From contig NZ_SWDE01000004.1 of the NCBI RefSeq assembly GCF_013337185.1, positions 310,001 to 374,000 on the forward strand: 64,000 bases of DNA, given 5' to 3'. Source of the DNA: Serratia proteamaculans. GTDB lineage: Bacteria > Pseudomonadota > Gammaproteobacteria > Enterobacterales > Enterobacteriaceae. The position numbers were made by a program, and so were the translations under genes. The number at the start of each line of letters is the position of its first letter. The first letter of the stretch is position 1. Shown here piece by piece: positions 10,707 through 27,026 of this stretch. The notes under the pieces were generated by a model. The model was not told the DNA's origin and searched no databases. It saw only the letters and a program-made list of their open reading frames with translations.

Positions 10707-10951
10707 AAAAGTAAATCGCCAATGAAATTGTTTTTTGTATTTTTGTTCTTAAAATACATTTGGTTATCTTTTTTATTTGTCGTGAGTTAGTGAGCGATAT
10801 ATTCGTATAGCAGAGGGCTCTTATTCTATTTTTTGTTATCCAGACCCCAGTTTGGCACAAAATTAAGTTGATTGTGGGCTATTCGTGCGCATAATGTTCG
10901 CGATTTTTTACAATTCTTTTCTTTTATTTGTCTTTCGACAGGGAAAAAGTC

Positions 10952-12677: not shown

Positions 12678-13208
12678 ATGCACACAGGCGAATACGACAT
12701 CAGAGCGCCGCTGATCCTCGGCGGTAACGACAGTGAGGCGGAAGCCTTTGGCGCCGCGGTCTGGCTGTGGATGCATTCGCCAATGCATCGTGATGCGCCG
12801 TTGCACACCTTGCCAACGCTGCTGCTGCCGATTATCAAACGCCAGCAATATGTGCTGGTATCGCAGCAAAATCAGCCGGTTTTCTTCCTCAGCTGGGCCT
12901 GGATGAGCCAGGAGGCAGAGGCACGCTATCTGACGCAGCCGGCGGTGAACATGCAGGAAAGTGACTGGAACAGTGGCGATCGTCTGTGGTTTTGCGACTG
13001 GATCGCCCCATTTGGCCATACGCGGGAAATGCGCAATCTGATTGCCAGGGAGATCTTCCCACACTTGTGCATGCGGGCGCTGTATCACCGGGGAGATCAA
13101 CGCGGCAAACGCGTGGTGAACTTTAAAGGTGCGCAGGTCAGCCATCAGCAAGCACAGCAATGGTGGGAAAGCCACCCGTTAGCCGTCGAGCCGTCAGAAA
13201 TTCAATAA
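12678..13208 (+). CDS. cdiC: HlyC-type toxin-activating lysine acyltransferase CdiC
   Basis: The 176-residue protein resembles HlyC, which transfers a fatty acyl chain from acyl carrier protein to lysines of a toxin. It has the SPMHR motif with His37 and the GDRLWFCDWIAPFG motif with Asp107. These match catalytic His23 and Asp92 of HlyC. Cytosolic; no signal peptide. Its place between cdiB and cdiA points to CdiA as substrate; such CdiC enzymes are known from a subset of CDI loci, where acylation helps target-cell recognition. GAGGA precedes the start. No RTX toxin gene is nearby, which strengthens CdiA as the partner. Confidence 0.9.
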   Translation: MHTGEYDIRAPLILGGNDSEAEAFGAAVWLWMHSPMHRDAPLHTLPTLLLPIIKRQQYVLVSQQNQPVFFLSWAWMSQEAEARYLTQPAVNMQESDWNSGDRLWFCDWIAPFGHTREMRNLIAREIFPHLCMRALYHRGDQRGKRVVNFKGAQVSHQQAQQWWESHPLAVEPSEIQ

Positions 13209-13218: not shown

Positions 13219-16200
13219 ATGAACAAGAACCTGTATCGTATTATTTTCAATAAAGCGCGTGGCATGCTGATGGTAGTGGCGGATATCGCCCGCTCCGGCC
13301 GGGCCGGATCTGCCCGTTCGCCGGGTTTGGGCCATACGCTGAGTCAGTGCATCGGTAAAATTAGCGCTATCAGCTTCAGTCTGCTGATAGCGCTGGGTGC
13401 CATACAGCCGGTGCAGGCGGCGATTATTGCCGACGGCAATGCGCCGGGCGGCCAGCAGCCGACCATTGTTAACAGCGCCAACGGTACGCCACAGGTCAAC
13501 ATTCAGACGCCAAGTGCCGGTGGGGTTTCCCGCAATACCTACAGCCAGTTTGACGTCGACAAGCAGGGCGCGATCCTCAACAACTCCCACAAAATGACCC
13601 AGACGCAGCAGGGCGGCTGGGTCGATGGCAACCCATGGCTGGCGAAGGGCGAAGCCAAGGTGATCCTTAATGAGGTTAACTCCCGCGATCCCAGCCGCCT
13701 GAACGGTTACATCGAAGTGGCCGGTCAGCGGGCGCAGGTGGTGATCGCCAACCCGTCCGGTATTACCTGTAACGGCTGCGGCTTTATCAATGCCAACCGC
13801 GCCACCCTGACCACCGGTCAGGCGCAAATGAACAACGGTAACCTGACCGGTTTTAACGTCGAACGCGGCGAAGTGGTGGTTGAAGGTGCCGGTATGGACA
13901 GTTCACGTCAGGATTACACCGAGATCATCGCCCGATCGACGAAGATCAATGCCGGACTTTGGGCTAACGATCTTAACGTGACCACCGGTCGTAACAAGGT
14001 GGATGCGGCGCACCAGCAGATCGACAAGCAGAGTGACGATCCTGCTACCCGCCCGCAACTGGCGGTAGACGTGGCGAAGCTGGGCGGTATGTATGCTGGC
14101 AAGATCCGTATGATCGGTACCGAAACCGGCGTCGGGGTGCGTAACGCCGGTAACATCGGTGCGCAGGCTGGCAGTGTGGTAGTGACTGCCGACGGCCGGA
14201 TTGAAAACAGCGGCAAAATCAGCAGCGGCGGCGATACGCAACTGGCTTCGAAGGGCGGCGTCAGCAACAGCGGTTCGGTGTTTGCGGCGGGCAATGCCGG
14301 GGTTAACAGCGACGGAGAGGTGCAAAATAGCGGCTCCATCGCTGCGCGTAACCATGTGCGCGTACAGGCAGCCAGCCTGAACAGCAGCAAAGGCAGCACG
14401 CTGGCGGCCGGTGTACAGCAGGATGGCAAGTTGGGCGGCAGCGGTGAACTGGCGCTGACCACCAGCGGTAAGCTTACCGCGCAGGGCCAGAACCTGGCGG
14501 CGGGCGATCTGCGTGCTAATGGGCAGGGCGCGGATTTCAGCGGCAGCAGAACTGCAGGCACCAATGTCATGCTGGACGCCGGACAGGGCGATTTGACCAC
14601 GGCCAATGCGCAGGTTGAGGCAACGCAACAACTGACCGCCAACAGCGGTAAGTTGCTGAACAACGACGGCGGCAAACTGGCCGCGAACAAGCTGGCGCTG
14701 AATGCGCATGATTTATCGAACCGTAAGGGCGAAATCACCCAGCTTGGCGGCGATGATTTAACGCTGAATCCACAGGGTAAATTGGATAATGCCGGTGGCC
14801 GTATCGCCAGCAACGGCAATGGCCTGACGCTGAAGGTCGGGGCGATCGACAACCAGAGCGGGGAAATCGTGCATGCCGGTAAAGGCGCGCTGACGGTGAA
14901 TACCGCTCGGCTGCAGGGCGATGGCGGCAAGCTGCTGTCCAACGGCCAGCTCAGTATGCTGGGCGGCGACTATGTATTGGACGGCGGTACCACGTCGGCA
15001 CAGCAAATCGCGTTGGATGCCGACAGCCTGTCTAACCGCAATGGCCAACTGGTGCAGAGCGGCAACGGTGAAATGCGTCTTAACACCCGCCGGGGTATTG
15101 ATAACCAGGGAGGCCAACTGGCCGCCAACGGCAACGTGACGCTAAACGCCGCACAGTTGAACAACCAGAATGGCAAAGTGATTGCCGCGCAGGACGGGAG
15201 CCTGAAGGCACAGGTCAGCGGGGCACTCGATAACCGCCAGGGGCAGCTGGCGGCCAGCCAGCATACCCGGCTGCAGGCGGATAAACTGGATAACCGTAAG
15301 GGGCTGGTTTCCGCTGCCACAGGCAGTGCCGAGATTGCGGCCCAACAGACATTGGACAACCGCGGCGGTCGTATTGAAGCTAAACAGGGCCTGCAACTGA
15401 GCGGTGGCGGGCTGGAAAATCAGGCTGGTCAGGTGGTGGGCGGCGAGCTTGCTCTGGCGCTCGGCAAGGGCGCACTGAACAACCAACAGGGCACTATCGC
15501 CGCTACCGGTGGCCTGAGTCTGAACAGCGGAGCGCTGACCAATGACGGCGGCCTGCTGCAATCCGCCGGCAACATGAACATGGACACCCAGGGCGCAGCC
15601 TTGAGTAACCGCCTGAGCGGCGAAACCGGCGGCATTCTCAGCCAGGGGACGCTGACGATCCACAGCGGCGCGCTGGACAACACTCAGGGCATGCTGGTGG
15701 GCGGCGGCACGACCGAACTGTTCACCGGCAGTCTGGATAACAGCAAAGGCACGTTGGTCGGCAAGCAAACGCTGAACATCGACAGCCTGGCGCTGACCAA
15801 TGACGGCGGTCTGTTGCAGGCGGGCGGCGATGCGACTCTCAATACCCAGGGGCAGACCTTAACCAACCGCGACAGCGGCAAGAATGGCGGCATCAGCAGC
15901 CTGGGTAAATTGACGATCGACAGCGGAGCGGTGGATAACCAGGCCGGCTTTATCGCCAGTTCCGGCGATCTGCAACTGCACGGTGAACAACTGGATAACC
16001 GCCAGGGTACGTTGGCCTCCGAGAAGCACTTATCGGCTGCGGTCAACACCCTCAACAACCAGGGCGGAGCAATTAAATCCGGTCAGGATATGGTGCTGAA
16101 CGCTAAAGACCTGTTGGATAACAGCAATCTTGGGGTGATTGGCGCAGGTAAAAAACTGCAGCTGGATAGCGACCATCTGGTGAATAACCAGGGCACCCTG

Positions 16201-19200
16201 GTCAGCGCCGATGCGGCGAAGCTCAACTTCGGTTTGCTGGAGAACCAGGGCGGCCAACTGGCGGCTCAGATGGTGCTGGAGTTGCACGGTAACAGCCTGA
16301 ATAACAACGACGGCGGTCTGATCCAGAGCGGCGATCGGCTGGAACTGGCGGTCGATCGACTGACTAATAACCACAGTGGCGATAAAGGCGGCATCACCAG
16401 CCAGGGGGCCATGAACCTTACCACTGGCGTGTTCGACAACGGCCAGGGCGTGGTGATTGCCGGTAAAGATCTCAAGCTCGACGCCGAAGCGCTGTTGAAC
16501 GGCGGTGGCAAACTGGTGGCGCAGCAAGCATTGGAGCTCAACACCACCGGCAGCCTGAGTAATCAGGGCGGGCTGGTGCAGTCGGGCGCGGATATGCAGA
16601 TCGACACCCATGGCCAGTTGCTGGATAACCAGAACGGCACCTTGCACAGCCTGGGGCAGCTGCAACTCAGCAGTGGCGACCTCAATAATCAGGGCGGCAC
16701 GCTGGGAGCCAAAGGCGATTTCACCCTGGCGGCGCTGAAACTGGACAACAGCAACGGTGGACGGATTATCGGCGAGAAGGCGGTGACGCTCACCAGCGCC
16801 GGTCTGGATAACCGTAATGGACAAATTCAGGCGGTCGGCAACCTGCTGCTGGACAGTGCTCAGGGAATTATCGATAACACTCTGGGGCTGATCCGCAGCG
16901 GTGCCAGCGTGACACTCAACGCTCTGCAGTTCACCAACGACAGCACTCAGGCGGAAAATAAAGGGCTGGAAGGCCAGTCAGTGGTGCTGAACACCGGCAC
17001 GCTGAGCAACCGCGGTGGCAACATTCTGGCTAACCAACAGTTGACCATCACCAACGCCGGCCTGCTTGATAACAGCGGCGGCCAACTGGCGGCTAGCGGA
17101 AATCTGCAGTTGCAGGGCGCAACGCTAAACATGCTGAACACTGCCGGTACCATTAAGGCTGGCAAGCTGCTGGACATCGATGCCGCAGCGGTCGGTGGCG
17201 ATGGGCAGTTGCTGTCGCTGGGTGATATTAATCTGGTCAGTGGGCAAGGTATCAATAACAGCGGCGAGATGATCGCCAACGGCAATTTCAACTTCACTAC
17301 GCCGGGCGATGTCACCAACAGCGGCAAACTGTTGGCAGGCTCCAAGCTTGATCTGCACGCCAACAACCTGTTCAACAATGCCAGCGGTGAGATCAATGCC
17401 GGGCAGGACTGGCTGACGGTGAATGGCACCCTGACCAACTACGGCCTGATCGACGGCAAGCACACCTTGCTGACTGCCAATACGCTGACCAACATCGGCA
17501 CTGGCCGCATTTATGGCGATGCGATTGGCGTGCAGACCGTCACCTTCAACAACCTGGCGGAAAACGGCACCGCCGCCACGCTGGCCGGGCGCGAGCGGGT
17601 GGATATTGGCACCCAGACGCTGAACAACTACGGGCACGGGTTGATCTACAGCGGTGGCGATATGGCGATTGGCGGTCAGCTTGATGCCAACTACCTGGTC
17701 AGCGGACAGGCGGGCACCCTCAACAACCACAGCTCGACCATTGAGTCTGCCGGTAACATGGCGCTGTCCGCCGGGCAGATCAATAACGTCAATGACCACT
17801 TCAGCACCGAGCTGGTGACGGTATCCAGCGACAAGCTGACCGAATACCAACTGAGCGGCTCCGACAAGCGTTATCAGCCGGACGAGATCCGCATCACCCA
17901 TGATGAGGTGAACTACCTCAACACGCCGGATGGGCGCAAAGACAACTATAACCAGTTCGATTTCAACCGCACGGTGCAGGAAACCCAGATCAAGGAAAGC
18001 GATCCGGCCAAGATAATCGCCGGTGGCGATATGGCGATCAATGCGGGTCATCTGCTCAATGACAAGAGTCAGGTGGTCGCGGGCGGTACGCTGGCGATTA
18101 ATGCCGGCAGCGTGGATAACGTGGCGGTGGCGGGCCAGCGCCTGACTACCGACGCCGGGGAAGTGACCAACTACTACCGCATCAAGAAGAAAGGCAAGGA
18201 CAAGCAGGGACATAACGCCACGGCCTACACGCCGCCGACCACCATTCAGACTATTGCACTGAAACCGAGCCAACTGATTGACCACGGGCAGGTTGCAGGC
18301 AACCCGATCGCCATCACGCCGCTGACGCCACAGGGTACCGATACCACCATCGGCGCGGCCGGTGGGGTGAATACGGTGGTGACCGGCAGTGATATCTCCG
18401 CCGGGATGCAGAGCATCGGCAGCGGTGCGATACCGGCGATCCTGGCCGTAGCCTTGCAACCGGGCCAGCAGTTTGAAGTCGCCAACAAGGTAAACAGCCA
18501 GCAGGGCGATGCGGTAGACAGCGTGGTACGCATTGTCGGGCCGGACACTCGCCTGCCGGACAACAGCCTGTTCAAAACCAATCCGGCACCGGGTGGGCAG
18601 TACCTGGTGGAAACCGATCCACGCTTCACCAACCAAAAATCCTGGCTGGGTTCGGACTATATGATTGCCAAGGCCACCAATAACCAGGACAACGTGTTGA
18701 AGCGTCTGGGCGATGGCTACTACGAGCAGCGGCTGATCCGCGAGCAGGTGATCAATCTGACCGGCCAGCGTTATCTGGACGGCTACAACAATGACGAAGA
18801 ACAGTTCAAGGCCCTGATGGATCAGGGGCTGACCTTTAGCCAGCAATATAACCTGAAGGTTGGTGTGGCGCTGACGCCAGAGCAGATGGGGTTGTTGACC
18901 AAAGACATCGTCTGGCTGGTGAATGCCAAGGTCACGCTGCCGGACGGCAGCCAGCAAAACGTGCTGGTGCCGCAGGTGTATGCCCGCATGCAACCGGGCG
19001 ATCTGGACGGTTCCGGCGCCTTGATTGCCGGGCGCAACGTCAACCTTAATCTGGGGGAAGGCCTGTTTAACAGCGGCCATATCGCCGGTCGCGAAGTGGT
19101 GAAACTGAGCGCGGCCAACATCACCAACGTGGCGGGCAATATTCAGGGTGCCGACGTAGGTCTGATCGCCCGTACCGACATCAACAATATCGGCGGCGTG

Positions 19201-22200
19201 ATCCAGGGCAACAACTCGCTGTTGGCCAGCGCCGGGCGTGACATAAATGCCATTAGCACCACCCGTACGGCGCAGAGCGTTAACGGCGCCAACAGCTTTG
19301 AGCGCACCAACATCGACAGCGTGGCGGGCATGTATGTACAGGGCGCCGACGGCAAGCTGATGCTGCAGGCCGGTCGCGACATCAAACTGGATGCGGCGCA
19401 GGTGGTTAACAGCGGTGAGAACGGCCAGACGGTGCTGAATGCCGGGCGCGATCTCAACCTGAATACGGTGACCACCGCCAGCCGTGACAACCTGATTTGG
19501 AACGGTGATAACAGCCTGAAACAGGGCAACAGCCAGCAGGTGGGCAGCGAAGTGGTCGGCAAGGGGGCTGTGACCCTCAACGCGGGCAACGATCTCAATG
19601 CCCGTGCGGCAACGGTTTCCGCCGGTGAGGCGCTTAACCTGAATGCCGGTCATGACATCAACATTCTCAACGGTGAGAACACTCGCGATCTGGACGAGCG
19701 TCATAAGGTGACCGGCGGCAACGGCCTGATGTCGAAAACCACCACCACCACCCGCGACAGCTTTGATCGTCAGACCGTCCAGGGCAGCACCCTCAGCGGT
19801 GACAGCATCAACGTGCTGGCAGGTAACGATCTGCGCGTGCAGGGCAGCAGCGTGGCCGGCACTCAGGATGTGAAACTGCTGGCGGGTAACGATCTGACCG
19901 TGACTGGCGCGACCGAGAGCAACCGTGAACTGCATCTCAAGCAGGAGAAAAAATCCGGCCTGATGAGCAGCGGCGGCATCGGCATCAGTTACGGCACCGA
20001 AAGCCTGAAAACCACCGATACCGCGCAGGGCCTGACCAATCAGGGCAGTACCCTCGGCAGCGTGAATGGCAACCTGACGCTGGGGGCCGGTAACAACCTG
20101 GCGGTGACCGGCTCCGAACTGGTGGCCGGTAAAGACATGGCACTGAGCGGCAAGAATGTGTCGGTGACGCAGGCACAGGACCAGAACAGCCAGACCCACA
20201 AGGTTGAACAGAAGAAATCCGGGCTGACGCTGGCGCTTTCCGGCACGGTCGGCAGCGCGTTGAACACCGCGGTGGAAACCTCACAGCAGGCAAAATCTAC
20301 CGACGACAGCCGTCTGGCGGCGTTGCAGGGCACCAAAGCGGCGTTAAGTGGCGTGCAGGCCGTTCAGGCGGCGCGCTTGGCCGAGGCGCAGGGTGCCGAT
20401 CCTGCCAACAATAATATGGTGGGGATCAGTATTTCCTACGGGACCCAGTCTTCGACCTCTACCCAGAACAGCGGGCAGAGCACCGCCCAGGGCAGCAGCT
20501 TGACGGCAGGCAACAACCTGAGCATCACCGCCAGCGGCAACGGCGTGAAGGGGCAGGATGGCGACATCACCGTGCAGGGCAGCCAATTGCAGGCGGGCAA
20601 AGACGTCAGCCTGAATGCCAATCGTGACGTGAACCTGCTGTCTGCCACCAACACCCAGTATCTGGACGGCAAGAACGAGAGCCAGGGCGGCACGCTCGGC
20701 GTGGGCATCGGCGTCGGTTCCGGTGGCATCGGGCTGAGCGTCTCCGCCAGCGTCAACAAAGGCAAAGGCAACGAGAAGGGCAACGGCACCACGCATACCG
20801 AAACCACGGTGAACGCCGGTAATCAGGTCAATATCACCAGCGGACGCGACACCAACCTGATCGGCGCGCAGGTCACCGGTGAAACGGTCAAGGCCGACGT
20901 CGGCCGCAACCTGCTGCTGGAGAGTCAGCAGGACAGCGATCGTTACGACTCGAAGCAGCAAAACGCCAGCGCCGGCGGCAGCTTCACCTTCGGCTCCATG
21001 ACCGGCTCCGGCAGCATCAGCCTGAGCAAAGACAAGATGCACAGCAACTACGACAGTGTGCAGGAGCAGACCGGTATCTTCGCCGGTAAAGGTGGCTTTG
21101 ATCTGACGGTGGGGGAACATACCCAGCTTAACGGCGCGGTAATCGGCAGCACCGCCACGGCGGACAAAAATAAACTCGACACCGGCACGCTGGGCTTTAA
21201 GGATATTCACAATCAGGCTGATTTCGAGGTAGAGCACCAGAGCGTGGGCATCAGTTCCGGCGGCAGCATCGGTAGCCAGTTCGCCGGTAACATGGCCAAC
21301 GGCCTGCTGGTGGGGGCCAACAACAGCGGACACGACAGCTCAACCACCCAATCGGCGGTGAGCGACGGCACCATCATCATCCGCGATCAGGACAAACAGA
21401 CGCAGAACGTCAGTGAGCTGAGCCGCGACGTAGAGCACGCCAACCAAACCCTGAGCCCGATCTTCGACAAAGAGAAAGAGCAGAAACGCCTGCAGCAGGC
21501 GCAGTTGATCGGCGAGATCGGCAATCAGGCGATGGACATTGCGCGGACCGAGGGAGCTATTACGGCCACCAAGGCTGCCAAAGAGAAGATGAATAACGTC
21601 ACCGATACCGATCGCAAGGCGGCGGCAGACAAGCTGGCGAAAGATAAGCCTGGTGAGGTGATCACCGCCGAGGATATCAACGCGCAGATTTATCAGACGG
21701 CCTATAACCAGGCGTTTAGCGAGTCGGGTTATGGCACGGGCGGTAAGGTACAGCGCGCGATGCAGGCTGCTACAGCGGCGGTTCAAGGATTATCTGGTGG
21801 TGATTTGACGGGCGCATTGGCTAATGGCGCCGCGCCTTATATCACCAACGTGATAGCAAACAGTATTGATGATCCTGCAGCCCGAGTCCTGGCACATGCA
21901 GCGGTTAATGGTGCGCTGGCGGCGGCTCAGGGCAACAACGCGTTAGTTGGTGCGGGTGGCGCTGCGACCGCTGAACTTATTGGTATGATTGCTACTGAAG
22001 CCTACGGTAAGCCGGTGAGTGAACTGAGCGAAACGGAGAAGCAGACAGTATCAGCATTGGCTACACTCGCAGCAGGTTTGGCCGGTGGGTTGATTGGTGA
22101 TAGCAGTGCCGACGCGATCGCTGGAGCGCAGACTGGTAAGACGGTAGTTGAGAATAACTGGTTGAGTGAGACGGAATCCCGTCAGCTTGATAAGGAGCTT

Positions 22201-23052
22201 TCAGCCTGTAAAGCCTCGGGAGGAGACTGTAAGCCGGTGCTTGAAAAGTACATTAAAATCAGTAATAAAAATAGCAAAGAACTGGCAGACGCTTGTACGG
22301 GGGGCGGTATTGCTTGTGTCACTTGGGAAGAGGTTATCCAGGCAAATACCAATGTTGCCAGGGATGCTGACCCGGCACAGTTCCGTTTGAGTGAAAAATT
22401 GAAGGATCCAGATGCCGCAGCACTGGTAAATTATCTCAATGGTTCGGATCTTAAGTTCCTGAAAGATAATATTACCACCGGAGATCGTGTACTGGCGGTT
22501 GCCATCGATCCTACCTCTTGGCCAGCACTTGTGATGGGAGGGAAAGCTATAATCACGAATGGCGTAACTAAAGGGAAAGAGCAGCTGATAGCGGTAGGGG
22601 TCTCCGGGGCGGCCAACGCAGCTATTCAATATGGGACGAGTAAAACCGGAGAGGTAAAATTGTCCGATGTAATCGGCGCAGGCATCATCGGAGCAATCAC
22701 TGCAGGCAAGGGGTATAATCCTACTGTTACATGGAATGCGGCAGGTGGCTATTATTCAGCAGAAATAAAAGGTGATGATCCATTCCTTGCAGCATTATTA
22801 GGAAAGGCTGGCGCATCTGTTGGTTATGTTTCTGGGAATATTATTAAAGTTCCTATGGATAAAATCCTTAACCCAGTATCTAAGCAGTATGAGTGGGTAC
22901 CAACTGGTATTTGGACCATAACAAAACCAGCACCGCAAAGTTCTCTTCCTTCTCTTAGCGGTAATATAGGGGACTCGACGGCGTCAGGACTGTTTGGTAG
23001 TGGTATGGAGGCAGCATTAAAAGAGCAAGGGGAAAAGAATGAAAAAAAGTAG
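13219..23052 (+). CDS. cdiA: Contact-dependent inhibition effector CdiA (filamentous haemagglutinin type, VENN-CT toxin)
   Basis: A 3277-residue TpsA exoprotein. The N-terminus has the extended signal peptide MNKNLYRIIFNKARG, with cleavage near residue 68. The TPS secretion domain carries NPSGI (178-182) and the cysteine pair CNGCG (184, 187). Long FHA-1 repeats (LDNxxGxL type) run to about residue 1530. A less repetitive stretch of about 1530-1940 is probably the receptor-binding and periplasmic-arrest part. FHA-2 repeats (AGRDIxL type) run from about 2000 to 2650, and the pretoxin region ends with VENNW at 2977-2981. The last ~297 residues are the toxin CT: a short Cys-containing entry part, then a glycine-rich hydrophobic domain (GVSGAANAAIQYG, DVIGAGIIGAITAGKG, AEIKGDDPFLAALLGK). 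This suggests a membrane-active rather than a nuclease toxin; that activity is inferred. Base composition drops from about 21,750 on. The 3' end overlaps the immunity gene by 14 bases. Confidence 0.94.
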   Translation: MNKNLYRIIFNKARGMLMVVADIARSGRAGSARSPGLGHTLSQCIGKISAISFSLLIALGAIQPVQAAIIADGNAPGGQQPTIVNSANGTPQVNIQTPSAGGVSRNTYSQFDVDKQGAILNNSHKMTQTQQGGWVDGNPWLAKGEAKVILNEVNSRDPSRLNGYIEVAGQRAQVVIANPSGITCNGCGFINANRATLTTGQAQMNNGNLTGFNVERGEVVVEGAGMDSSRQDYTEIIARSTKINAGLWANDLNVTTGRNKVDAAHQQIDKQSDDPATRPQLAVDVAKLGGMYAGKIRMIGTETGVGVRNAGNIGAQAGSVVVTADGRIENSGKISSGGDTQLASKGGVSNSGSVFAAGNAGVNSDGEVQNSGSIAARNHVRVQAASLNSSKGSTLAAGVQQDGKLGGSGELALTTSGKLTAQGQNLAAGDLRANGQGADFSGSRTAGTNVMLDAGQGDLTTANAQVEATQQLTANSGKLLNNDGGKLAANKLALNAHDLSNRKGEITQLGGDDLTLNPQGKLDNAGGRIASNGNGLTLKVGAIDNQSGEIVHAGKGALTVNTARLQGDGGKLLSNGQLSMLGGDYVLDGGTTSAQQIALDADSLSNRNGQLVQSGNGEMRLNTRRGIDNQGGQLAANGNVTLNAAQLNNQNGKVIAAQDGSLKAQVSGALDNRQGQLAASQHTRLQADKLDNRKGLVSAATGSAEIAAQQTLDNRGGRIEAKQGLQLSGGGLENQAGQVVGGELALALGKGALNNQQGTIAATGGLSLNSGALTNDGGLLQSAGNMNMDTQGAALSNRLSGETGGILSQGTLTIHSGALDNTQGMLVGGGTTELFTGSLDNSKGTLVGKQTLNIDSLALTNDGGLLQAGGDATLNTQGQTLTNRDSGKNGGISSLGKLTIDSGAVDNQAGFIASSGDLQLHGEQLDNRQGTLASEKHLSAAVNTLNNQGGAIKSGQDMVLNAKDLLDNSNLGVIGAGKKLQLDSDHLVNNQGTLVSADAAKLNFGLLENQGGQLAAQMVLELHGNSLNNNDGGLIQSGDRLELAVDRLTNNHSGDKGGITSQGAMNLTTGVFDNGQGVVIAGKDLKLDAEALLNGGGKLVAQQALELNTTGSLSNQGGLVQSGADMQIDTHGQLLDNQNGTLHSLGQLQLSSGDLNNQGGTLGAKGDFTLAALKLDNSNGGRIIGEKAVTLTSAGLDNRNGQIQAVGNLLLDSAQGIIDNTLGLIRSGASVTLNALQFTNDSTQAENKGLEGQSVVLNTGTLSNRGGNILANQQLTITNAGLLDNSGGQLAASGNLQLQGATLNMLNTAGTIKAGKLLDIDAAAVGGDGQLLSLGDINLVSGQGINNSGEMIANGNFNFTTPGDVTNSGKLLAGSKLDLHANNLFNNASGEINAGQDWLTVNGTLTNYGLIDGKHTLLTANTLTNIGTGRIYGDAIGVQTVTFNNLAENGTAATLAGRERVDIGTQTLNNYGHGLIYSGGDMAIGGQLDANYLVSGQAGTLNNHSSTIESAGNMALSAGQINNVNDHFSTELVTVSSDKLTEYQLSGSDKRYQPDEIRITHDEVNYLNTPDGRKDNYNQFDFNRTVQETQIKESDPAKIIAGGDMAINAGHLLNDKSQVVAGGTLAINAGSVDNVAVAGQRLTTDAGEVTNYYRIKKKGKDKQGHNATAYTPPTTIQTIALKPSQLIDHGQVAGNPIAITPLTPQGTDTTIGAAGGVNTVVTGSDISAGMQSIGSGAIPAILAVALQPGQQFEVANKVNSQQGDAVDSVVRIVGPDTRLPDNSLFKTNPAPGGQYLVETDPRFTNQKSWLGSDYMIAKATNNQDNVLKRLGDGYYEQRLIREQVINLTGQRYLDGYNNDEEQFKALMDQGLTFSQQYNLKVGVALTPEQMGLLTKDIVWLVNAKVTLPDGSQQNVLVPQVYARMQPGDLDGSGALIAGRNVNLNLGEGLFNSGHIAGREVVKLSAANITNVAGNIQGADVGLIARTDINNIGGVIQGNNSLLASAGRDINAISTTRTAQSVNGANSFERTNIDSVAGMYVQGADGKLMLQAGRDIKLDAAQVVNSGENGQTVLNAGRDLNLNTVTTASRDNLIWNGDNSLKQGNSQQVGSEVVGKGAVTLNAGNDLNARAATVSAGEALNLNAGHDINILNGENTRDLDERHKVTGGNGLMSKTTTTTRDSFDRQTVQGSTLSGDSINVLAGNDLRVQGSSVAGTQDVKLLAGNDLTVTGATESNRELHLKQEKKSGLMSSGGIGISYGTESLKTTDTAQGLTNQGSTLGSVNGNLTLGAGNNLAVTGSELVAGKDMALSGKNVSVTQAQDQNSQTHKVEQKKSGLTLALSGTVGSALNTAVETSQQAKSTDDSRLAALQGTKAALSGVQAVQAARLAEAQGADPANNNMVGISISYGTQSSTSTQNSGQSTAQGSSLTAGNNLSITASGNGVKGQDGDITVQGSQLQAGKDVSLNANRDVNLLSATNTQYLDGKNESQGGTLGVGIGVGSGGIGLSVSASVNKGKGNEKGNGTTHTETTVNAGNQVNITSGRDTNLIGAQVTGETVKADVGRNLLLESQQDSDRYDSKQQNASAGGSFTFGSMTGSGSISLSKDKMHSNYDSVQEQTGIFAGKGGFDLTVGEHTQLNGAVIGSTATADKNKLDTGTLGFKDIHNQADFEVEHQSVGISSGGSIGSQFAGNMANGLLVGANNSGHDSSTTQSAVSDGTIIIRDQDKQTQNVSELSRDVEHANQTLSPIFDKEKEQKRLQQAQLIGEIGNQAMDIARTEGAITATKAAKEKMNNVTDTDRKAAADKLAKDKPGEVITAEDINAQIYQTAYNQAFSESGYGTGGKVQRAMQAATAAVQGLSGGDLTGALANGAAPYITNVIANSIDDPAARVLAHAAVNGALAAAQGNNALVGAGGAATAELIGMIATEAYGKPVSELSETEKQTVSALATLAAGLAGGLIGDSSADAIAGAQTGKTVVENNWLSETESRQLDKELSACKASGGDCKPVLEKYIKISNKNSKELADACTGGGIACVTWEEVIQANTNVARDADPAQFRLSEKLKDPDAAALVNYLNGSDLKFLKDNITTGDRVLAVAIDPTSWPALVMGGKAIITNGVTKGKEQLIAVGVSGAANAAIQYGTSKTGEVKLSDVIGAGIIGAITAGKGYNPTVTWNAAGGYYSAEIKGDDPFLAALLGKAGASVGYVSGNIIKVPMDKILNPVSKQYEWVPTGIWTITKPAPQSSLPSLSGNIGDSTASGLFGSGMEAALKEQGEKNEKK

Positions 23053-23257
23053 ATCAGTTATTTTAATGTTATATTTAACGTGCTCGTTTTTTGTGCTTTT
23101 ATTCATCATGAGTCTATTATTTCAAACCCTTGGTTATTGGGTTAACGGAGGGGAGAACATAATATTTTTTGTAAAGGATAATTTTTACACCTACTTAAAA
23201 GTGGGGAGTGTTGGTTTTTTTGTTGGATTCGTGTTGTGGTTGTTTAATGTACGATGA
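23039..23257 (+). CDS. cdiI: CDI immunity protein CdiI (small two-helix membrane protein)
   Basis: The 72-residue product begins MKKSRSVILMLYLTCS and has two hydrophobic helices (about residues 8-30 and 52-70) joined by a loop (YWVNGGENIIFFVKDNF). It starts inside the cdiA 3' end and overlaps it by 14 bases, the classic cdiA-CT/cdiI arrangement. An inner-membrane immunity protein fits a toxin that acts on the membrane. It shares with the orphan immunity genes downstream the same size, topology and a glycine-rich second helix ending in Trp and hydrophobics (GFFVGFVLWLF). No individual family name is recognised. Confidence 0.85.
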   Translation: MKKSRSVILMLYLTCSFFVLLFIMSLLFQTLGYWVNGGENIIFFVKDNFYTYLKVGSVGFFVGFVLWLFNVR

Positions 23258-23372
23258 CACTGCTTTTAGCAAGCCAGCTCCACAGCATCCTTTGCCCCCT
23301 ATTATTGGAAATATGGGGGGCTCGGTAGTGTCAGAGATTGTACTGAAATGTTTAGGGGGAAATGGGTGGTAA
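23247..23372 (+). pseudogene. Relic of an orphan CdiA-CT tail
   Basis: The frame beginning ATG-TAC-GAT at 23247 encodes SKPAPQHPLPPIIGNMGGSV and a few more residues before the stop at 23370. The end of cdiA reads TKPAPQSSLPSLSGNIGDST, so this is the last ~40 codons of a related toxin C-terminus. Everything upstream of the tail has been lost. It overlaps the end of cdiI. The ATG is probably fortuitous. Confidence 0.75.
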
Positions 23373-23620
23373 ATGATAAAAATCCTGGGTGTTTTAATTA
23401 AGGTTTTTTCCTTATTGAACTTGCCATAAGCTCAGTTGTTCTGATTACCTTTGTTTTTCTTGAAGAGTTAACTTATATTTCAGAAGGCATTTTTAGCCTG
23501 GATAATTTGTGGTTAGGCTTGAGAGATGCTACTTTTGTGGCCATTCCAGCCAGTTTAATTATTTGGTTATTTTATTATGTAGTACCTGCGTTAAAAAATA
23601 ATTTGTATGTAAATTTATAA
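23373..23620 (+). pseudogene. Frameshifted orphan CDI immunity gene
   Basis: ATG 23373 directly follows the toxin-tail relic and reads MIKILGVLIK. It then runs into a T6 tract (aaggttttttcc), after which this frame stops within a few codons. In the neighbouring frame translation continues through FFLIELAISSVVLITFVFLE and a second hydrophobic helix (VAIPASLIIWLFYYVVP) to a stop at 23618. Joined, the two give a ~80-residue two-helix protein of the same pattern as the other immunity proteins here. The simplest reading is a slip in the T-run that broke an immunity gene. Confidence 0.75.
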
Positions 23621-23754
23621 TTTTAGACCATTAGACCTAGGCAGTTTCCTCTAAGCTATAAATCTACCATTTTCACACTGTTGTAGCCGGTTAATATTAG
23701 GTTCCCGGGGCACCGCAACCTGCGACCGAGTTTGTTAAGGCTTGGGGCAAGTTT

Positions 23755-24201
23755 ATGATAACTGCGGCATCATTGGGCTCAGGAACTGTTGTCGGCGGAA
23801 GTTCAATGGCCGTGGGGGGATTAATCGGTGGTTCGGCGAACGCAGGTGTACAGCTGCAAGGCAATAAACCCTTTAATTATACCGATTTGTTCATTGCCAC
23901 TGGGTCTGCTGCCCTGACTCAGGGTAAAGGTGTTGTTGCTACTGAAATTATTGGTGTGAGCGGAGCTTACGTCGGTAGTGAAATCAAAGGTGAAGACCCC
24001 AAGAATGCAATGATAGCTGCTGGCGTCGGTGGGGCCGTGGGTATTGTAGGGGGTAAGGTAATTACTGTTGGTAATCAGTTAAAACCTGTTGTATCGAGTA
24101 AAACAGCTGAGACTATGGGGAACGTTATAGGCTCAACGGCTTCTGAAATTACAAGTGGTTCAACACAAGATACGTTGGATGAAAAAGGTAAAGCAAAATG
24201 A
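23755..24201 (+). CDS. Orphan CdiA-CT toxin domain (second module), N-terminally incomplete
   Basis: This 148-residue frame starts at the first ATG but is open back to 23701, just after a TAG (VPGAPQPATEFVKAWGKF), with no start codon or ribosome site there. It is the glycine-rich part of a toxin related to the CT of the main cdiA. Shared landmarks are GGSANAGVQL, YTDLFIATGSAALTQGKGVV and GSEIKGEDPKNA, against AEIKGDDPFLAA in cdiA. The VENN junction and entry domain are missing, so it cannot be delivered as it stands. It could become active by recombination onto cdiA. Its stop overlaps the next immunity start as ATGA. Confidence 0.7.
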   Translation: MITAASLGSGTVVGGSSMAVGGLIGGSANAGVQLQGNKPFNYTDLFIATGSAALTQGKGVVATEIIGVSGAYVGSEIKGEDPKNAMIAAGVGGAVGIVGGKVITVGNQLKPVVSSKTAETMGNVIGSTASEITSGSTQDTLDEKGKAK

Positions 24202-24455
24202 AATTTATTAATTTCTTTATCCCAAAAACAATAGGTATTCATCTTCTTATTTTTCTGATTATCTATTGTATTATTTTTTCTGTACTTGCTGTATTACTGG
24301 CCAAAGGAGCTATCGCATTTATTGGGCATTTAGAGGGTGATGTTTCATCATTTAGCGTGGCCAAGGAATTTACGCACGCTTTAAAAGTGGGCATTGCGAG
24401 TGGAATTCCTCTGGGGATTGGTTGTTGGGTGTTATCTAAACTAGATGAAAACTAG
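24198..24455 (+). CDS. Orphan CDI immunity protein (second module)
   Basis: This 85-residue protein has two membrane helices (HLLIFLIIYCIIFSVLAVLL and VGIASGIPLGIGCWVLS). It starts in an ATGA overlap with the orphan toxin domain before it, as cognate immunity genes do. The C-terminus has been cut short by an 11-base tandem duplication. Without it the frame would read KLDEKKKSSPNK and stop at 24485, eight residues further on. Because the lost part is a charged tail, the protein may still work. Confidence 0.75.
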   Translation: MKFINFFIPKTIGIHLLIFLIIYCIIFSVLAVLLAKGAIAFIGHLEGDVSSFSVAKEFTHALKVGIASGIPLGIGCWVLSKLDEN

Positions 24456-24462
24456 ATGAAAA
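24441..24462 (+). repeat. 11-base tandem duplication at the end of the second immunity gene
   Basis: CTAGATGAAAA occurs twice head to tail (24441-24451 and 24452-24462). The first copy puts a TAG in the immunity frame. Removing one copy restores a longer lysine-rich C-terminus. Confidence 0.85.
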
Positions 24463-24499
24463 AAAGAAGTCCTCACCTAATAAATAGCCATATCAATTA

Positions 24500-25060
24500 T
24501 TGGCGGTTGCTGGGGCTATTTGGGGAGCCAAAGGCCTTGGTAAGGTGAGTAAAGATCATTACCAGGCGACTTCCGCATTGGTTACCGCTTGGGCACTATT
24601 TATGAGCGGTGTTGGAGGGGCTGTCATAGCACCTACTGCGGGTACTGCTGCCGTTATTGGGGGCGGGGCCTTAGGTGGCATTACAGATGCAACGAAACAA
24701 GCTATTACGATTAACTTTAAACCAAAAGAAAAATATAGTTATACCGATACATTGATTGCTATTGGTACCGGTGCGGTAACTCAGGGTAAAGGCCTTATTT
24801 TCTCTGGTGCTGTGAACTCGGGTGGTGCATATTTTGGCAGTAGGCTAAAAGGTGAAGATGCTACTGGTGCTGTGACTGGCGCAGTAGTTGGTACTTTAAT
24901 CGGTTATAAAGGCGGAGAGAAAATTACAGAGAAAATAATCTCTCATGGTGTTTCTCCTGTATCGGCTGAAGTTATTGGTACTGTAAGTGGTGGTGTAGTA
25001 GGAACTGCCATCGGCACCGGTGTAGAGAGTGGTCTGAAAAAGGATGATAGTAAAAAATGA
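24500..25060 (+). CDS. Orphan CdiA-CT toxin domain (third module), N-terminally incomplete
   Basis: The 186-residue frame begins at a TTG without a ribosome site and is open only back to the TAG at 24485-24487. The next ATG is at 24602. It aligns with the second module: VTAWALFM against VKAWGKFM, YTDTLIAIGTGAVTQGKG against YTDLFIATGSAALTQGKG, and RLKGEDATGAV against EIKGEDPKNAM. Upstream it keeps more of the entry region (GAIWGAKGLGKVSKDHYQ). It is a toxin domain without export parts, kept as a cassette next to its immunity gene, which overlaps its stop codon. Confidence 0.7.
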   Translation: MAVAGAIWGAKGLGKVSKDHYQATSALVTAWALFMSGVGGAVIAPTAGTAAVIGGGALGGITDATKQAITINFKPKEKYSYTDTLIAIGTGAVTQGKGLIFSGAVNSGGAYFGSRLKGEDATGAVTGAVVGTLIGYKGGEKITEKIISHGVSPVSAEVIGTVSGGVVGTAIGTGVESGLKKDDSKK

Positions 25061-25323
25061 AAAAGAAGCATGTTGGATTGTCTCTATTTTTGTATTTGCT
25101 GTGCTCTTGTACAATTTTGATACTAATGGGGGCATTAGTAGGAAGTGTTATTGGGCCTGTAATTACCTACTTTCGTGGTGGAGAGTTCCTCTATCAATGG
25201 AGTGAGTTGCTCTACATATCTTCAATGGGGGCTGGTGTTGGCGCTGTTCTTGGTGTGGGTATTTGGGTTCTTGCGAAAATAGAAGAAGTCAGAAAGCGGA
25301 ACGCAAGTTGGAAAGAGAAGTAA
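25057..25323 (+). CDS. Orphan CDI immunity protein (third module)
   Basis: An 88-residue protein with two hydrophobic segments (LFLYLLCSCTILILMGALVG and GAGVGAVLGVGIWVLAK) and a charged C-terminal tail (KIEEVRKRNASWKEK). The start overlaps the stop of the third toxin module as ATGA. Closest relative in the window is the fourth immunity gene, which shares FLYLLxSC and GVGIWVxAKIEE. Confidence 0.78.
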   Translation: MKKKHVGLSLFLYLLCSCTILILMGALVGSVIGPVITYFRGGEFLYQWSELLYISSMGAGVGAVLGVGIWVLAKIEEVRKRNASWKEK

Positions 25324-25349
25324 TTCCCTTGTAGATGTTTTTAAAGTAA

Positions 25350-25439
25350 TTATTTTATAGAGTGTTAGGGGGTGGTGGTGTCGCTGGGACAGTGATAGTG
25401 GTAGGCATGAAAATTGAGGTAAAAAGTAATGAAAAATAA
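25350..25439 (+). pseudogene. Relic of a fourth orphan CdiA-CT tail
   Basis: The frame from 25350 to a stop at 25437 reads VLGGGGVAGTVIVVGMKIEV and KSNEK. The end of the third toxin module reads VSGGVVGTAIGTGVESGLKK and DDSKK, so this is a leftover toxin terminus. It overlaps the following immunity gene by 11 bases, as a functional pair would. No start codon context; about 25 codons survive. Confidence 0.65.
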
Positions 25440-25677
25440 GAATGTAGATTTCTCGATGTTTTTATACTTATTGTTTTCATGTGTATTGTTGATAGTTGGA
25501 ATAGCTATTTTAGCCAGTTTTATCGCGCCAATAATATTCTTTTTCCGTAATGGGGTTTTTGATTATCGGTTAGATACGTTTATTTTTTCTTGTAAAGCTG
25601 GGATCGGAGCTGGTATTCCATTGGGTGTTGGTATTTGGGTGTTTGCGAAAATAGAAGAGTTCAAAAAGAAAAAATGA
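25429..25677 (+). CDS. Orphan CDI immunity protein (fourth module)
   Basis: An 82-residue two-helix protein (SMFLYLLFSCVLLIVGIAIL and GAGIPLGVGIWVFAK), clearly paralogous to the third immunity protein. The DNA encoding GIWVxAKIEE is nearly identical in the two genes (25258-25287 and 25630-25659). Its toxin partner survives only as the tail just upstream, so it is now an immunity gene without a local toxin. It could protect against siblings that carry the matching CdiA-CT. Its stop overlaps the next gene as ATGA. Confidence 0.78.
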   Translation: MKNKNVDFSMFLYLLFSCVLLIVGIAILASFIAPIIFFFRNGVFDYRLDTFIFSCKAGIGAGIPLGVGIWVFAKIEEFKKKK

Positions 25678-26207
25678 AACGGACTTACATGACCATTCTG
25701 CTATCGGTTAGCCTCGGTATTGCATTGCTTAACCCTCTGAATGCTGGGGCCATAACACGGGAAGGAATGCAGCAACTCGATGCAGCTTATCCTCCGGGTA
25801 GCTTTACGATTTGCGAATCTCAGTTTGAGGGGAACGGCAAGGATCTAATACCGATGCTTGTAAAAATCCGTGGGCATACTATAGACCGTTCAGAAAATGT
25901 GAGTCATTCCGATGTCCACGTAATGTTCATTCCCCATGGATCCTCAACGGCAACAATTACCCTGAGTTATCGGCAGACAGTGACTAAGGAAGCTAATGGT
26001 CAGTGGGCTCATATTGATCCGGATAGCCTTAAAGTTTCAATGCCAACCAATCCGTCCAGTGAGGATATTGTAGCCCAAGGATTTCGCGATCGACTCCCTT
26101 CAGGAAAAGAACTGCAGCCTTATGAGACGACAGAAATCACCGATTTTCCGTCTTATGTGGTCAGGGTTCCAGGTGAGTCCCCTCTTTACTGCCATAAGGA
26201 CGAGTAG
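25674..26207 (+). CDS. Secreted or periplasmic protein of unknown function coupled to the immunity array
   Basis: I start it at ATG 25674, which overlaps the stop of the fourth immunity gene (ATGA), giving 177 residues. A frame open further upstream runs through the immunity gene and is not needed. The N-terminus is a signal peptide (MTILLSVSLGIALLNPLNAG). The mature part has two cysteines (ICESQFEG and LYCHKDE near the end), perhaps a disulphide, and alternates beta-like segments (VHVMFIPHGSSTATITLSYR). I do not recognise the family. Its position suggests a role within or beside the CDI locus, for example a periplasmic factor, but it may only be a neighbour. Confidence 0.7.
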   Translation: MKRTYMTILLSVSLGIALLNPLNAGAITREGMQQLDAAYPPGSFTICESQFEGNGKDLIPMLVKIRGHTIDRSENVSHSDVHVMFIPHGSSTATITLSYRQTVTKEANGQWAHIDPDSLKVSMPTNPSSEDIVAQGFRDRLPSGKELQPYETTEITDFPSYVVRVPGESPLYCHKDE

Positions 26208-26380
26208 GGGGCAGAGTTTGAGTGAAATAGATATCACGTAGCACCTGAGAATTGGCAGGAATTGTTATTGATGCGTAGCTACTCGCAAATTACCGGTTCT
26301 ACTGATTAATTATAATGCCGGATTTGCTACGATCTAACCTTATCTATCAGTAGGGTTTAATCATATCCAACAAATAATTT

Positions 26381-26398
26381 ATGCCGTCAATACGGCAT
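26381..26398 (+). promoter_or_regulatory. Hairpin in the leader of the Ail/OmpX-type gene
   Basis: ATGCCGT and ACGGCAT are exact complements around the loop CAAT, about 50-70 bases before the start codon. A T7 run follows nine bases later. A -10-like TATAAT lies at 26311-26316. It could be a stabilising leader hairpin or an attenuator. Confidence 0.45.
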
Positions 26399-26450
26399 GG
26401 ATAGCTATTTTTTTACCTAAGTTGTTCCACTTACTATTAAGGACGATTTT

Positions 26451-27026
26451 ATGAAAAAGTTAGTCATCACCACTCTGGTTGTTTCCACTTTAGGCTTCGG
26501 CGCGGTGGCGCAGGCCGGGCAAAGCACTATCACCGCCGGTTATGCGCAGAGCAAGGTGCAGGACTTCAAGAATATCAACGGTGTGAATATTAAGTACCGC
26601 TACGAGTGGGATTCACCAGTCAGCGTTATCAGCTCATTCACCTATATGAGCGGTGACAAGAACGAGTCTTACAATCTCTATCGCGACGTCATTGATAACC
26701 GCGCTGAAGTGAAATACTACTCACTGTCTGTGGGGCCGGCGTACCGCTTTAACCAATTTGTCAGCGTCTACGGCTTGCTGGGCTTGAATTATAACAAGGT
26801 TGATTACAAGTCATCCTGGAATAACTACGCAAACGACTCTTACGAATATATGGGTGAAGAGAGCGGTAACCAGAAGAAAACCTCCTTTATGTACGGCGTC
26901 GGTTTCCAGGTTAACCCAATGGATAATCTGGCGGTGGATATCGGTTACGAAGGCTCCAGCCTGGATGCCGGTGGTAAAAACCGTGCTATCAATGGCTTCA
27001 ACATCGGTGTTGGCTATCGTTTCTGA
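26451..27026 (+). CDS. Ail/OmpX-family eight-stranded outer-membrane protein
   Basis: The 191-residue product has a signal peptide (MKKLVITTLVVSTLGFGAVA, cut after AQA) and then the Ail/OmpX pattern. Visible elements are QSTITAGYAQSKVQDF, the RYEWDSPVSVISSFTYMSGD strand-loop, LSVGPAYRFNQFVSVYGLLG, and a C-terminal GFNIGVGYRF with terminal Phe. Members contribute to adhesion, complement resistance or envelope integrity; which applies here cannot be told. E. coli OmpX has 171 residues, so the loops are slightly longer. Single gene with its own leader; a hairpin follows. Confidence 0.9.
   Translation: MKKLVITTLVVSTLGFGAVAQAGQSTITAGYAQSKVQDFKNINGVNIKYRYEWDSPVSVISSFTYMSGDKNESYNLYRDVIDNRAEVKYYSLSVGPAYRFNQFVSVYGLLGLNYNKVDYKSSWNNYANDSYEYMGEESGNQKKTSFMYGVGFQVNPMDNLAVDIGYEGSSLDAGGKNRAINGFNIGVGYRF

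What the first reader, a model, noticed from the sequence alone, without database searches (positions are those of the whole stretch)
23039..25677. Ladder of five related toxin-tail/immunity modules behind cdiA
Downstream of cdiA-cdiI I see four more units. All encode the same glycine-rich toxin family (EIKGEDP-type motif, YTDxxIAxGxxAxTQGKG) and all are paired with two-helix immunity proteins whose second helix ends in IWV or LWLF. Two are long toxin fragments with overlapping intact immunity genes; two are only tails. Orphan CT/immunity cassettes are known in CDI loci. A run of one membrane-active-looking family suggests diversification by repeated replacement of the cdiA 3' end.
Basis: partly seen in the sequence, partly recalled or inferred. 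Interest (0 to 1): 0.8.

Follow-up and report, generated by a model that had tools for sequence, protein, structure and literature searches.

The report
Ladder of spare bacterial toxin-immunity tails
Behind one gene for a contact-delivered bacterial toxin lies a row of leftover toxin ends, most with an intact antidote gene, and comparison with relatives suggests that these bacteria can change toxin-antidote pairs by swapping only the last forty or so codons together with the antidote gene.

Summary
Behind cdiA-cdiI (13219-23257) lie four more toxin-end/immunity units: two long fragments and two tails; one immunity gene (23373-23620) is broken. The toxins belong to the known alpha-helical CDI ionophores of the CdiA-CT-EC93 family: CT3 is 50% identical, CT2 35%, CT1 28%. 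Orphan CDI modules are known (Poole 2011). In S. grimesii related units lie at the same place in another order: the window's last unit is the active toxin end, and the window's active one survives as a tail. The window's toxins do not form one clade, which favours replacement over tandem duplication. What my searches did not find in print: the piece exchanged is often smaller than the toxin. Like toxin bodies (85-98% DNA identity) change abruptly, mostly about 40 codons before the stop, and the immunity gene differs too (11 of 11 Serratia or Photorhabdus pairs; separate E. coli contrasts). Tails-only units resemble that cassette. A second copy of its own toxin type lies behind 4 of 9 Serratia cdiA genes of this type and 0 of 18 others. 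Function is inferred, not shown.

The parts
10928..12667 (+). cdiB, outer-membrane transporter (true start may lie a little downstream of the listed TTG)
   Evidence: Pfam ShlB 1.1e-108, POTRA_2, POTRA_3
12678..13208 (+). cdiC-like lysine acyltransferase, as in class IV (lipidated) CDI systems
   Evidence: Pfam HlyC 4.6e-37; class IV described in PMC8510554 (abstract and outline seen)
13219..23052 (+). cdiA, 3277 aa; VENN motif at 22147; active toxin end CT1 from about 22573
   Evidence: TPS domain, haemagglutinin repeats, PT-VENN
22147..22572 (+). entry domain of CT1; its first part matches the CdiA-CT of PDB 4g6u, E 3.6e-8 (that this chain is the YciB-dependent TA271-type DNase is my recollection)
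   Evidence: residues 52-142 alone do not find 4g6u up to E 10
22573..23052 (+). CT1 ionophore domain with glycine zipper GASVGYVSG
   Evidence: 28% to CT-EC93 over 112 aa, pairwise E 4e-8
23039..23257 (+). I1, cognate immunity gene, 72 aa, hydrophobic
   Evidence: 94% identical orphan copy in S. grimesii
23262..23372 (+). tailA: about the last 35 codons of a CT1-like toxin
   Evidence: z 7.9 against CT1
23373..23620 (+). Ix: broken immunity gene behind tailA (two frames; pieces read apart)
   Evidence: weak similarity to I4 only
23701..24201 (+). CT2: toxin fragment without VENN or start region; begins with a conserved block (GAPQPATEFVKAW); mosaic with a break near 24113
   Evidence: 87% aa to S. 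quinivorans and S. plymuthica cdiA ends; MaxChi break, 0 of 500 shuffles
24114..24455 (+). tail+immunity cassette of unit CT2/I2 (inferred swap unit)
   Evidence: tail and I2 match the G017 orphan tail/I2 (pS 0.26 and 0.24) and not S. quinivorans (pS 0.56 and 0.71)
24198..24455 (+). I2 immunity gene, 85 aa
24488..25060 (+). CT3: toxin fragment without VENN
   Evidence: 50% to CT-EC93 over 161 aa, pairwise E 8e-52
25057..25323 (+). I3 immunity gene, 88 aa
   Evidence: two-helix model, mean pLDDT 72
25350..25439 (+). tailB: about the last 23 codons of the CT4-type toxin that ends a full-length cdiA in S. grimesii
25429..25677 (+). I4 immunity gene, 82 aa
   Evidence: 78-90% to I4 of S. grimesii, PL17 and G017; dN/dS 0.10-0.27
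25674..26207 (+). g177: exported-looking protein (my reading of its first residues) of unknown family; start overlaps the I4 stop; follows I4 in S. grimesii too
   Evidence: 6 of 30 genus genomes; no convincing Pfam, NCBIfam or PHROG family
26377..26402 (+). possible transcription terminator after the ladder (weak)
   Evidence: 3 sites found in the region, 3.8 expected by chance
26451..27026 (+). Ail/OmpX-like gene, right border of the locus
   Evidence: shared flank in relatives

Best explanation
This is a CDI locus whose toxin end has been exchanged repeatedly within one toxin family, the EC93-type alpha-helical ionophores. CT1 is the toxin now delivered: after contact it would enter the inner membrane of a neighbour and collapse its membrane potential, and I1, a two-helix membrane protein, would protect the cell and its siblings. 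The four units behind it are displaced or acquired pieces: they have no VENN, secretion or receptor-binding parts and cannot be delivered, but three keep an intact immunity gene. New specificity arrives by recombination in DNA shared by the toxins. The swapped piece can be the whole ionophore domain plus immunity gene, or only the last helix (about 40 codons) plus immunity gene; the old piece may stay behind as a rung. Retained immunity genes would protect against neighbours that use the matching toxin. Shown here: family membership, anatomy, synteny, changed order, mosaic breaks. Inferred: depolarisation, immunity, expression of the rungs, the direction and mechanics of exchange.
For: Homology to the published ionophore CT-EC93: CT3 50% (pairwise E 8e-52), CT4 of S. 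grimesii 50% (8e-57), CT2 35% (5e-25), CT1 28% (4e-8), glycine zipper in each. Same locus, other order: S. grimesii has CT4/I4/g177 in the active place and the CT1 tail (80%) with I1 (94%) behind. Each window toxin groups with other genomes' toxins; one clade rejected, AU p 1e-33. Exchange of cdiA 3' DNA between species: S. grimesii and S. quinivorans are 95.5% identical over the 939 bases before the ionophore domain, against 85.6% in the cdiA body and 87.2% in the flank, and drop to 33-57% per 60 bases behind it. Swap inside the toxin: of 70 pairs (38 units) with bodies at least 65% identical and alignable immunity proteins, 11 share tail and immunity, 59 share neither, none only one; the 11 of those 59 with body DNA identity of 0.85 or more all show a sharp break, 9 of them 29-47 codons before the stop. 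E. coli: 35 genomes match CT-EC93 with its immunity gene; 2 throughout, and the best match of the other 33 ends at the same base, 40 codons before the stop. Nuclease controls: in one, 39 of 40 rows listed (210 records) match up to the toxin's last base and lose only the immunity gene, 1 matches throughout; in the other, 23 of 40 rows listed (116 records) match through the immunity gene. Immunity dN/dS 0.10-0.28.
Against: No activity was tested. The CT3 model is poor (pLDDT 49), so the five-helix fold and the helix border at the break rest mainly on published models. Pairs and genomes are not independent; the four of the 33 E. coli genomes examined share one other tail, so they are one contrast. 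The rejection of one clade carries a long-branch warning for CT1. Low dN/dS also covers time before the units became orphans. tailA and tailB (about 35 and 23 codons) may be trimmed remnants. Two of the 11 breaks lie 57-66 codons before the stop. In the second nuclease control 3 of 40 rows listed also end 39 codons before the stop, 2 end 15 and 11 end about 3 codons before it, all at 69-70% identity. Of three pairs tested for the opposite pattern (tail more alike than body) one was clear, one marginal, one not. Ix is broken, so one rung cannot protect. The promoter and terminator scan showed nothing above chance.
Confidence: 0.8

Rival explanations
1. Decay only: whole toxin/immunity modules were displaced one after another and lost their 5' parts gradually; the tails are what is left because the immunity gene is kept or because the toxin has eroded from the front.
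For: Orphan arrays of whole modules are known (PMC3150448). Remaining toxin lengths vary: about 23, 28-30, 35, 45 and 54 codons in five tails from the window, S. grimesii, G006 and G017. Ix is already broken.
Against: Near-identical toxin bodies with foreign tails and foreign immunity genes exist in full-length toxins too, which decay does not explain. Decay is not ordered by distance from cdiA: tailA, the nearest, is the second shortest.
Confidence: 0.3
2. Fast amino-acid evolution of the last helix and of the immunity protein, by mutation and selection for new specificity, without DNA exchange.
For: Published view: polymorphism lies in helices 1, 4 and 5 that are predicted to touch immunity, and the pairs are robust to mutational change (PMC11630599, sections read).
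Against: Silent sites jump as well: pS 0.17 before and 0.56 after the break between the window CT2 and S. quinivorans, 0.71 in the immunity gene. A body of 97.6% DNA identity next to a tail of 54% leaves little time for mutation. The replaced tail has a close match elsewhere (G017).
Confidence: 0.08
3. Tandem duplication of one module inside this genome followed by divergence.
For: The units are of one family and lie head to tail; I3 and I4 are 49% identical.
Against: Each window toxin is nearer to a toxin of another genome than to its neighbours; a single clade is rejected.
Confidence: 0.04
4. The rungs are selected mainly as an immunity bank against other strains, and the toxin remnants play no part in switching. 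(Not exclusive of the best explanation.)
For: Immunity genes are open in 3 of 4 orphan units while no orphan toxin is complete; the window carries a relative of the immunity gene of the active S. grimesii toxin (I4 84%) and S. grimesii one of the window's (I1 94%); dN/dS 0.10-0.28.
Against: Expression of the orphan immunity genes is unknown, and no promoter excess was found. Whether 84% identity suffices for protection is unknown; in E. coli about 60% identity gave partial protection in one pair (PMC11630599).
Confidence: 0.45

Closest known systems
Type 10 alpha-helical CDI ionophores (CdiA-CT-EC93 family; Halvorsen et al. 2024, PMC11630599)
   Same: Sequence homology, glycine zipper, two-helix immunity protein of 72-100 residues, very polymorphic pairs, exchangeable entry domains
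   Different: The paper surveys E. coli toxins by group. The word orphan does not occur in its main text and its four uses of recombin- concern laboratory methods or an IS5 deletion. In the parts I read it does not describe ladders of one family or a break about 40 codons before the stop
Orphan cdiA-CT/cdiI modules (Poole et al. 2011, PMC3150448)
   Same: Arrays of toxin fragment plus immunity gene behind cdiBAI; the same module active in one strain and orphan in another; order differs between strains
   Different: There modules usually keep VENN, and in the Y. pseudotuberculosis array described the toxins are unrelated to one another (passages); here no VENN, one toxin family, and units as small as a last helix plus immunity gene
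Class IV CDI systems with CdiC acyltransferase (PMC8510554, abstract and outline)
   Same: A HlyC-family gene in the cdi locus
   Different: LPS binding and lipidation not testable here
Exchangeable Rhs effector/immunity pairs of Serratia (PMC10539506; seen in search listings only)
   Same: By its title, exchange of toxin/immunity pairs in the same genus
   Different: Type VI delivery, NADase toxins

Membership tests
Type 10 alpha-helical CDI ionophore | Sequence homology to CT-EC93 | tested here: met
   CT1, CT2, CT3 and CT4 each with 0 of 1000 shuffles reaching the score. That L075 holds the ionophore CT of EC93 follows from its PEGQDPARGLL motif and zipper at residues 168-176 from VENN, as published
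Type 10 alpha-helical CDI ionophore | Glycine zipper GxxxGxxxG in the fourth helix | tested here: met
   Motif in all four toxins, shifted by four residues in CT1 and CT2; in CT3 it falls in the fourth of five predicted helices of a low-confidence model
Type 10 alpha-helical CDI ionophore | Five-helix ionophore domain | tested here: inconclusive
   All-helical CT3 model with five helices after two entry helices, mean pLDDT 49
Type 10 alpha-helical CDI ionophore | Small hydrophobic two-helix immunity protein encoded next to the toxin | tested here: met
   I1-I4 are 72-88 aa; hairpin model of I3; I2-I4 related to EC93 immunity (0 of 1000 shuffles each), I1 weakly (16 of 1000)
Type 10 alpha-helical CDI ionophore | Depolarises target cells; cognate immunity protects | not testable with these tools
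   Needs a bench assay
Group 4 (YciB-dependent) entry domain for CT1 | Homology to the TA271 entry domain | tested here: inconclusive
   The entry region matches 4g6u overall (E 3.6e-8), but residues 52-142 alone do not
Orphan cdiA-CT/cdiI module | Lies behind cdiBAI and pairs a cdiA-CT fragment with an immunity gene | tested here: met
   Four units, three with an open immunity gene
Orphan cdiA-CT/cdiI module | VENN motif at the start of the fragment (usual, not universal, in Poole 2011) | tested here: not met
   No literal VENN in the 8,148 bases behind the window's cdiA
Orphan cdiA-CT/cdiI module | Same module serves as a cdiA end elsewhere | tested here: met
   tailB/I4 type ends cdiA in S. 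grimesii; CT2 body in S. quinivorans and S. plymuthica. Not found elsewhere for Ix
Class IV CDI | cdiC acyltransferase gene in the locus | tested here: met
   Pfam HlyC 4.6e-37
Class IV CDI | LPS-core receptor and lipidated receptor-binding domain | not tested
   -

The most novel reading that the evidence does not exclude
Ionophore CDI toxins carry a separable specificity cassette, the last helix of the toxin plus the immunity gene, which is exchanged as one piece onto a conserved pore body, even between genera. Ladders like this one are stores of such cassettes: they let a lineage change its toxin-immunity type by one short recombination event while keeping immunity to its former types, and so give strains with swapped orders reciprocal immunity.
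Probability: 0.5. Interest if true: 0.75.

Novelty: new variant of a known kind. Interest (0 to 1): 0.58.

Why it matters
Ionophore CDI toxins are said to be far more diverse than nuclease CDI toxins, and robustness to mutation was offered as the reason (PMC11630599). A swappable end of about 40 codons plus immunity gene is a different and testable reason. It would also explain why these orphan units are of one family, and it predicts which strains should tolerate each other.

Tried and rejected
Pfam, NCBIfam, PHROGs and PADLOC gave no convincing toxin or immunity family (for cdiA itself PT-VENN and the secretion domains); the family was identified through the EC93 plasmid hit and the literature. 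A PDB profile search with the toxin family found only two hits at E 0.2 and 0.83. The CT3 structure model is too poor for a fold search, so none was run. Assigning CT1 to the YciB group stayed open. A first thought that g177 is a CDI accessory gene is weakened: in 3 of 29 plasmid records inspected its relatives lie near an AAA ATPase gene with no annotated cdi gene within 4 kb, although all 7 genus places lie within 6 kb of a PT-VENN match. Tandem duplication and fast mutation were rejected as main causes. A correlation of tail with immunity identity given body (partial 0.40; body given tail 0.19) is only support because the pairs are not independent. Of 9 E. coli units set up, two dropped out (toxin frame not found) and one had no immunity gene found. 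In one search unit pairs with under 50 body or 15 tail codons aligned, and five loci that repeat others (L062-L065, L070), were left out beforehand.

Literature: PMC11630599 was read in Results parts 1 and 2 of 4, its modularity section, the Discussion and search passages; PMC3150448 in one section and passages; PMC8510554 abstract and outline; PMC8190604 passages; others only as search listings. That the tail swap or the one-family ladders are not in print rests on these searches of an open-licence library only.


Full report
What is there. The locus reads cdiB (10928-12667), a HlyC-family acyltransferase gene (12678-13208), cdiA (13219-23052, VENN at 22147) and the immunity gene I1 (23039-23257). 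Behind it, before an Ail/OmpX-like gene at 26451, lie four more units: tailA with a broken immunity gene Ix; CT2 (23701-24201) with I2; CT3 (24488-25060) with I3; tailB with I4, followed by a gene g177 (25674-26207) whose start overlaps the I4 stop. G+C falls from about 0.6 in most of cdiA to 0.36-0.46 in the ladder. The three long toxin ends are related beyond chance, and so are most pairs of I1-I4.

What it is. The toxin ends belong to the EC93 ionophore family. I took CdiA-CT-EC93 from the plasmid record of strain EC93 (accession confirmed in passages of PMC8190604). That it is the ionophore of EC93's two CDI systems follows from its PEGQDPARGLL motif and its zipper at residues 168-176 counted from VENN, both as published. 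CT3 is 50% identical over 161 residues (pairwise E 8e-52), the S. grimesii toxin CT4 50% over 174 (8e-57), CT2 35% (5e-25), CT1 28% (4e-8); all keep a GxxxGxxxG zipper, and I2-I4 resemble the EC93 immunity protein (I1 weakly, 16 of 1000 shuffles). Halvorsen et al. 2024 (PMC11630599; parts read) showed that such toxins depolarise target cells and are blocked by cognate immunity proteins, with no or partial cross-protection in the pairs they tested; they predict a five-helix ionophore domain behind exchangeable entry domains and two-helix immunity proteins. My model of I3 is a two-helix hairpin (pLDDT 72); that of CT3 is all-helical but poor (pLDDT 49).

Where else. A profile of the three window toxins finds relatives in 11 of 30 genomes searched in the genus, the window's own among them, and the immunity profile in 13 of 30. 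A scan of public genomes gave 18 loci, 14 of them outside Serratia: Photorhabdus, Edwardsiella, Brenneria, Cedecea, Paraburkholderia. In 9 of those 14 the fetched DNA holds two or more toxin hits of the family at E 0.001 (some second hits are partial or weak, and several contigs are short). Among 27 full-length cdiA genes (open frame of 3,000 aa or more, out of 49 PT-VENN places) of the 30 genomes, 9 carry this toxin type. A second copy of the gene's own toxin end lies within about 8.5 kb downstream in 4 of 9, against 0 of 18 for other toxin types (one-sided Fisher p 0.007), although 8 of those 18 have a VENN motif downstream and so probably orphan units. Loci are not independent, and two have a short downstream stretch (G016, G005b). 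Toxins of this type diverge fast, which should make the test conservative for them.

Exchange between strains. The right flank is shared by several relatives, but the ladder is not. S. grimesii (G004): full-length cdiA ending in CT4, I4 (84% to I4), then g177 (69%), then about the last 30 codons of CT1 (80%) with I1 (94%). S. quinivorans and S. plymuthica: full-length cdiA ending in a toxin 87% like CT2, with an immunity protein only 41% like I2. G017: a CT4 fragment with I4 (90%), then a CT2 tail with I2 (88%). G018, at the same place, and G012, where the flank was not found, have CT1-like active toxins (72-74%) with immunity 33-41% like I1. So what is active in one is remnant in another. On a tree of 34 rows each window toxin groups with other genomes' toxins: CT1 with G012 and G018, CT2 with S. 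quinivorans and S. plymuthica, CT3 with the CT4 toxins; holding the three together is rejected (AU p 1e-33; the program warns of long branches, above all for CT1). DNA exchange is direct to see between S. grimesii and S. quinivorans: 95.5% identity in the 939 bases before the ionophore domain, against 85.6% in the cdiA body and 87.2% in the flank, then 33-57% per 60 bases in the ionophore domain and immunity gene. This puts one break at the border of entry and ionophore domain.

A smaller swap unit. The window CT2 fragment is a mosaic. Codons 1-132 are 93.9% identical in DNA to S. quinivorans (pS 0.17); codons 133 to the end 62.5% (pS 0.56); the immunity gene pS 0.71. Its tail and I2 instead match G017 (pS 0.26 and 0.24). 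The break lies near base 24113 (MaxChi, 0 of 500 shuffles). The pattern is general in the sample. Of 697 usable pairs among 38 units, 70 have toxin bodies at least 65% identical and alignable immunity proteins; 11 share both tail (76% or more) and immunity (73% or more), 59 share neither (tail up to 59%, immunity up to 52%), and none shares only one. The 11 of those 59 with body DNA identity of 0.85 or more, all Serratia or Photorhabdus, each show a sharp break (0 of 200 shuffles each), 9 of them 29-47 codons before the stop and 2 at 57-66; the most extreme has 97.6% DNA identity before and 54% after. Of three pairs tested for the reverse, tail more alike than body, one is clear (Edwardsiella against Serratia G015, 0.92 against 0.80, p 0.002); the others give p 0.03 and 0.14. 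In E. coli, 35 of 5,426 genomes match CT-EC93 with its immunity gene; 2 match throughout, and the best match of each of the other 33 ends at the same base, 40 codons before the toxin's stop. Four of the 33 were examined and share one other tail, so this is one contrast, not 33. A second E. coli toxin body (the M15 orphan) gives another: of 45 matching genomes 8 match throughout and 6 match at 95-97% only up to 38 or 26 codons before the stop, the rest more weakly; against one of those 6 the body is 95.4%, the tail 60.7% and the immunity protein 42% identical. Two nuclease toxins served as controls. For one, 39 of 40 rows listed (of 210 records) match up to the toxin's last base at about 78% and lose only the immunity gene, and 1 matches throughout. 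For the other, 23 of 40 rows listed (of 116 records) match through the immunity gene; at 69-70% identity 3 rows end 39 codons, 2 rows 15 and 11 rows about 3 codons before the stop; 1 row is a short 5' match. So neither control shows a high-identity body with a foreign last 40 codons in the rows seen.

How it probably works. CT1 is the only unit that can be delivered. The rungs lack VENN and everything before it. Three of the four keep an open immunity gene; dN/dS of immunity genes against relatives is 0.10-0.28, which fits continued use but also reflects time before displacement. The most alike of I1-I4 are I3 and I4 at 49%, in the range of the 59 pairs that share neither, so I expect different specificities. 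The tails-only units (about 23 to 54 codons of toxin plus immunity gene) resemble the swap unit found above. I infer that recombination in the shared toxin body brings in a new last helix with its immunity gene, and that the old one can remain downstream. The window and S. grimesii might then be mutually immune: each carries a relative of the other's immunity gene (I4 84%, I1 94%).

Limits. No activity, expression or immunity was tested. Homology to a shown ionophore is strong for CT3 and CT4 and weaker for CT1, the unit that is active here. The entry route of CT1 is open. The reading of the rungs as stores rather than relics is an inference, at about even odds.

Noticed in passing
12678-13208: A HlyC-family acyltransferase gene between cdiB and cdiA marks this as a class IV-like (lipidated) CDI system.
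   Followed up: partly
G000:C14:126411-126563, outside the window: The same genome has a second full-length cdiA (open frame 3308 aa) whose toxin end is not of this family by the profile used.
   Followed up: no
25674-26207: g177, an exported-looking protein of unknown family, overlaps I4 by stop and start. All 7 places in 6 of 30 genus genomes lie within 6 kb of a PT-VENN match, but its relatives on the three plasmids inspected (Pantoea, Klebsiella, Lelliottia; of 29 records) have no annotated cdi gene nearby.
   Followed up: partly
23705-23746: A block of about 42 bases (GAPQPATEFVKAW) is 90-98% identical to cdiA ends of five other Serratia loci of two toxin types; it marks the border of entry and ionophore domain.
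   Followed up: yes
24437-24469: A short direct repeat at the end of I2 seems to have shortened its C-terminus by about seven residues relative to G017 (read by eye).
   Followed up: no
L071 (G006), 7392-13331 on the reversed strand: G006 has g177 twice (one partial) with several immunity remnants around the OmpX-like gene, a more rearranged ladder.
   Followed up: no
L061 (E. coli MSI001): An E. coli cdi locus where an EC93-type unit is followed by units annotated with other CDI immunity proteins; those were not typed here, but it looks like a mixed array in contrast to the window.
   Followed up: no
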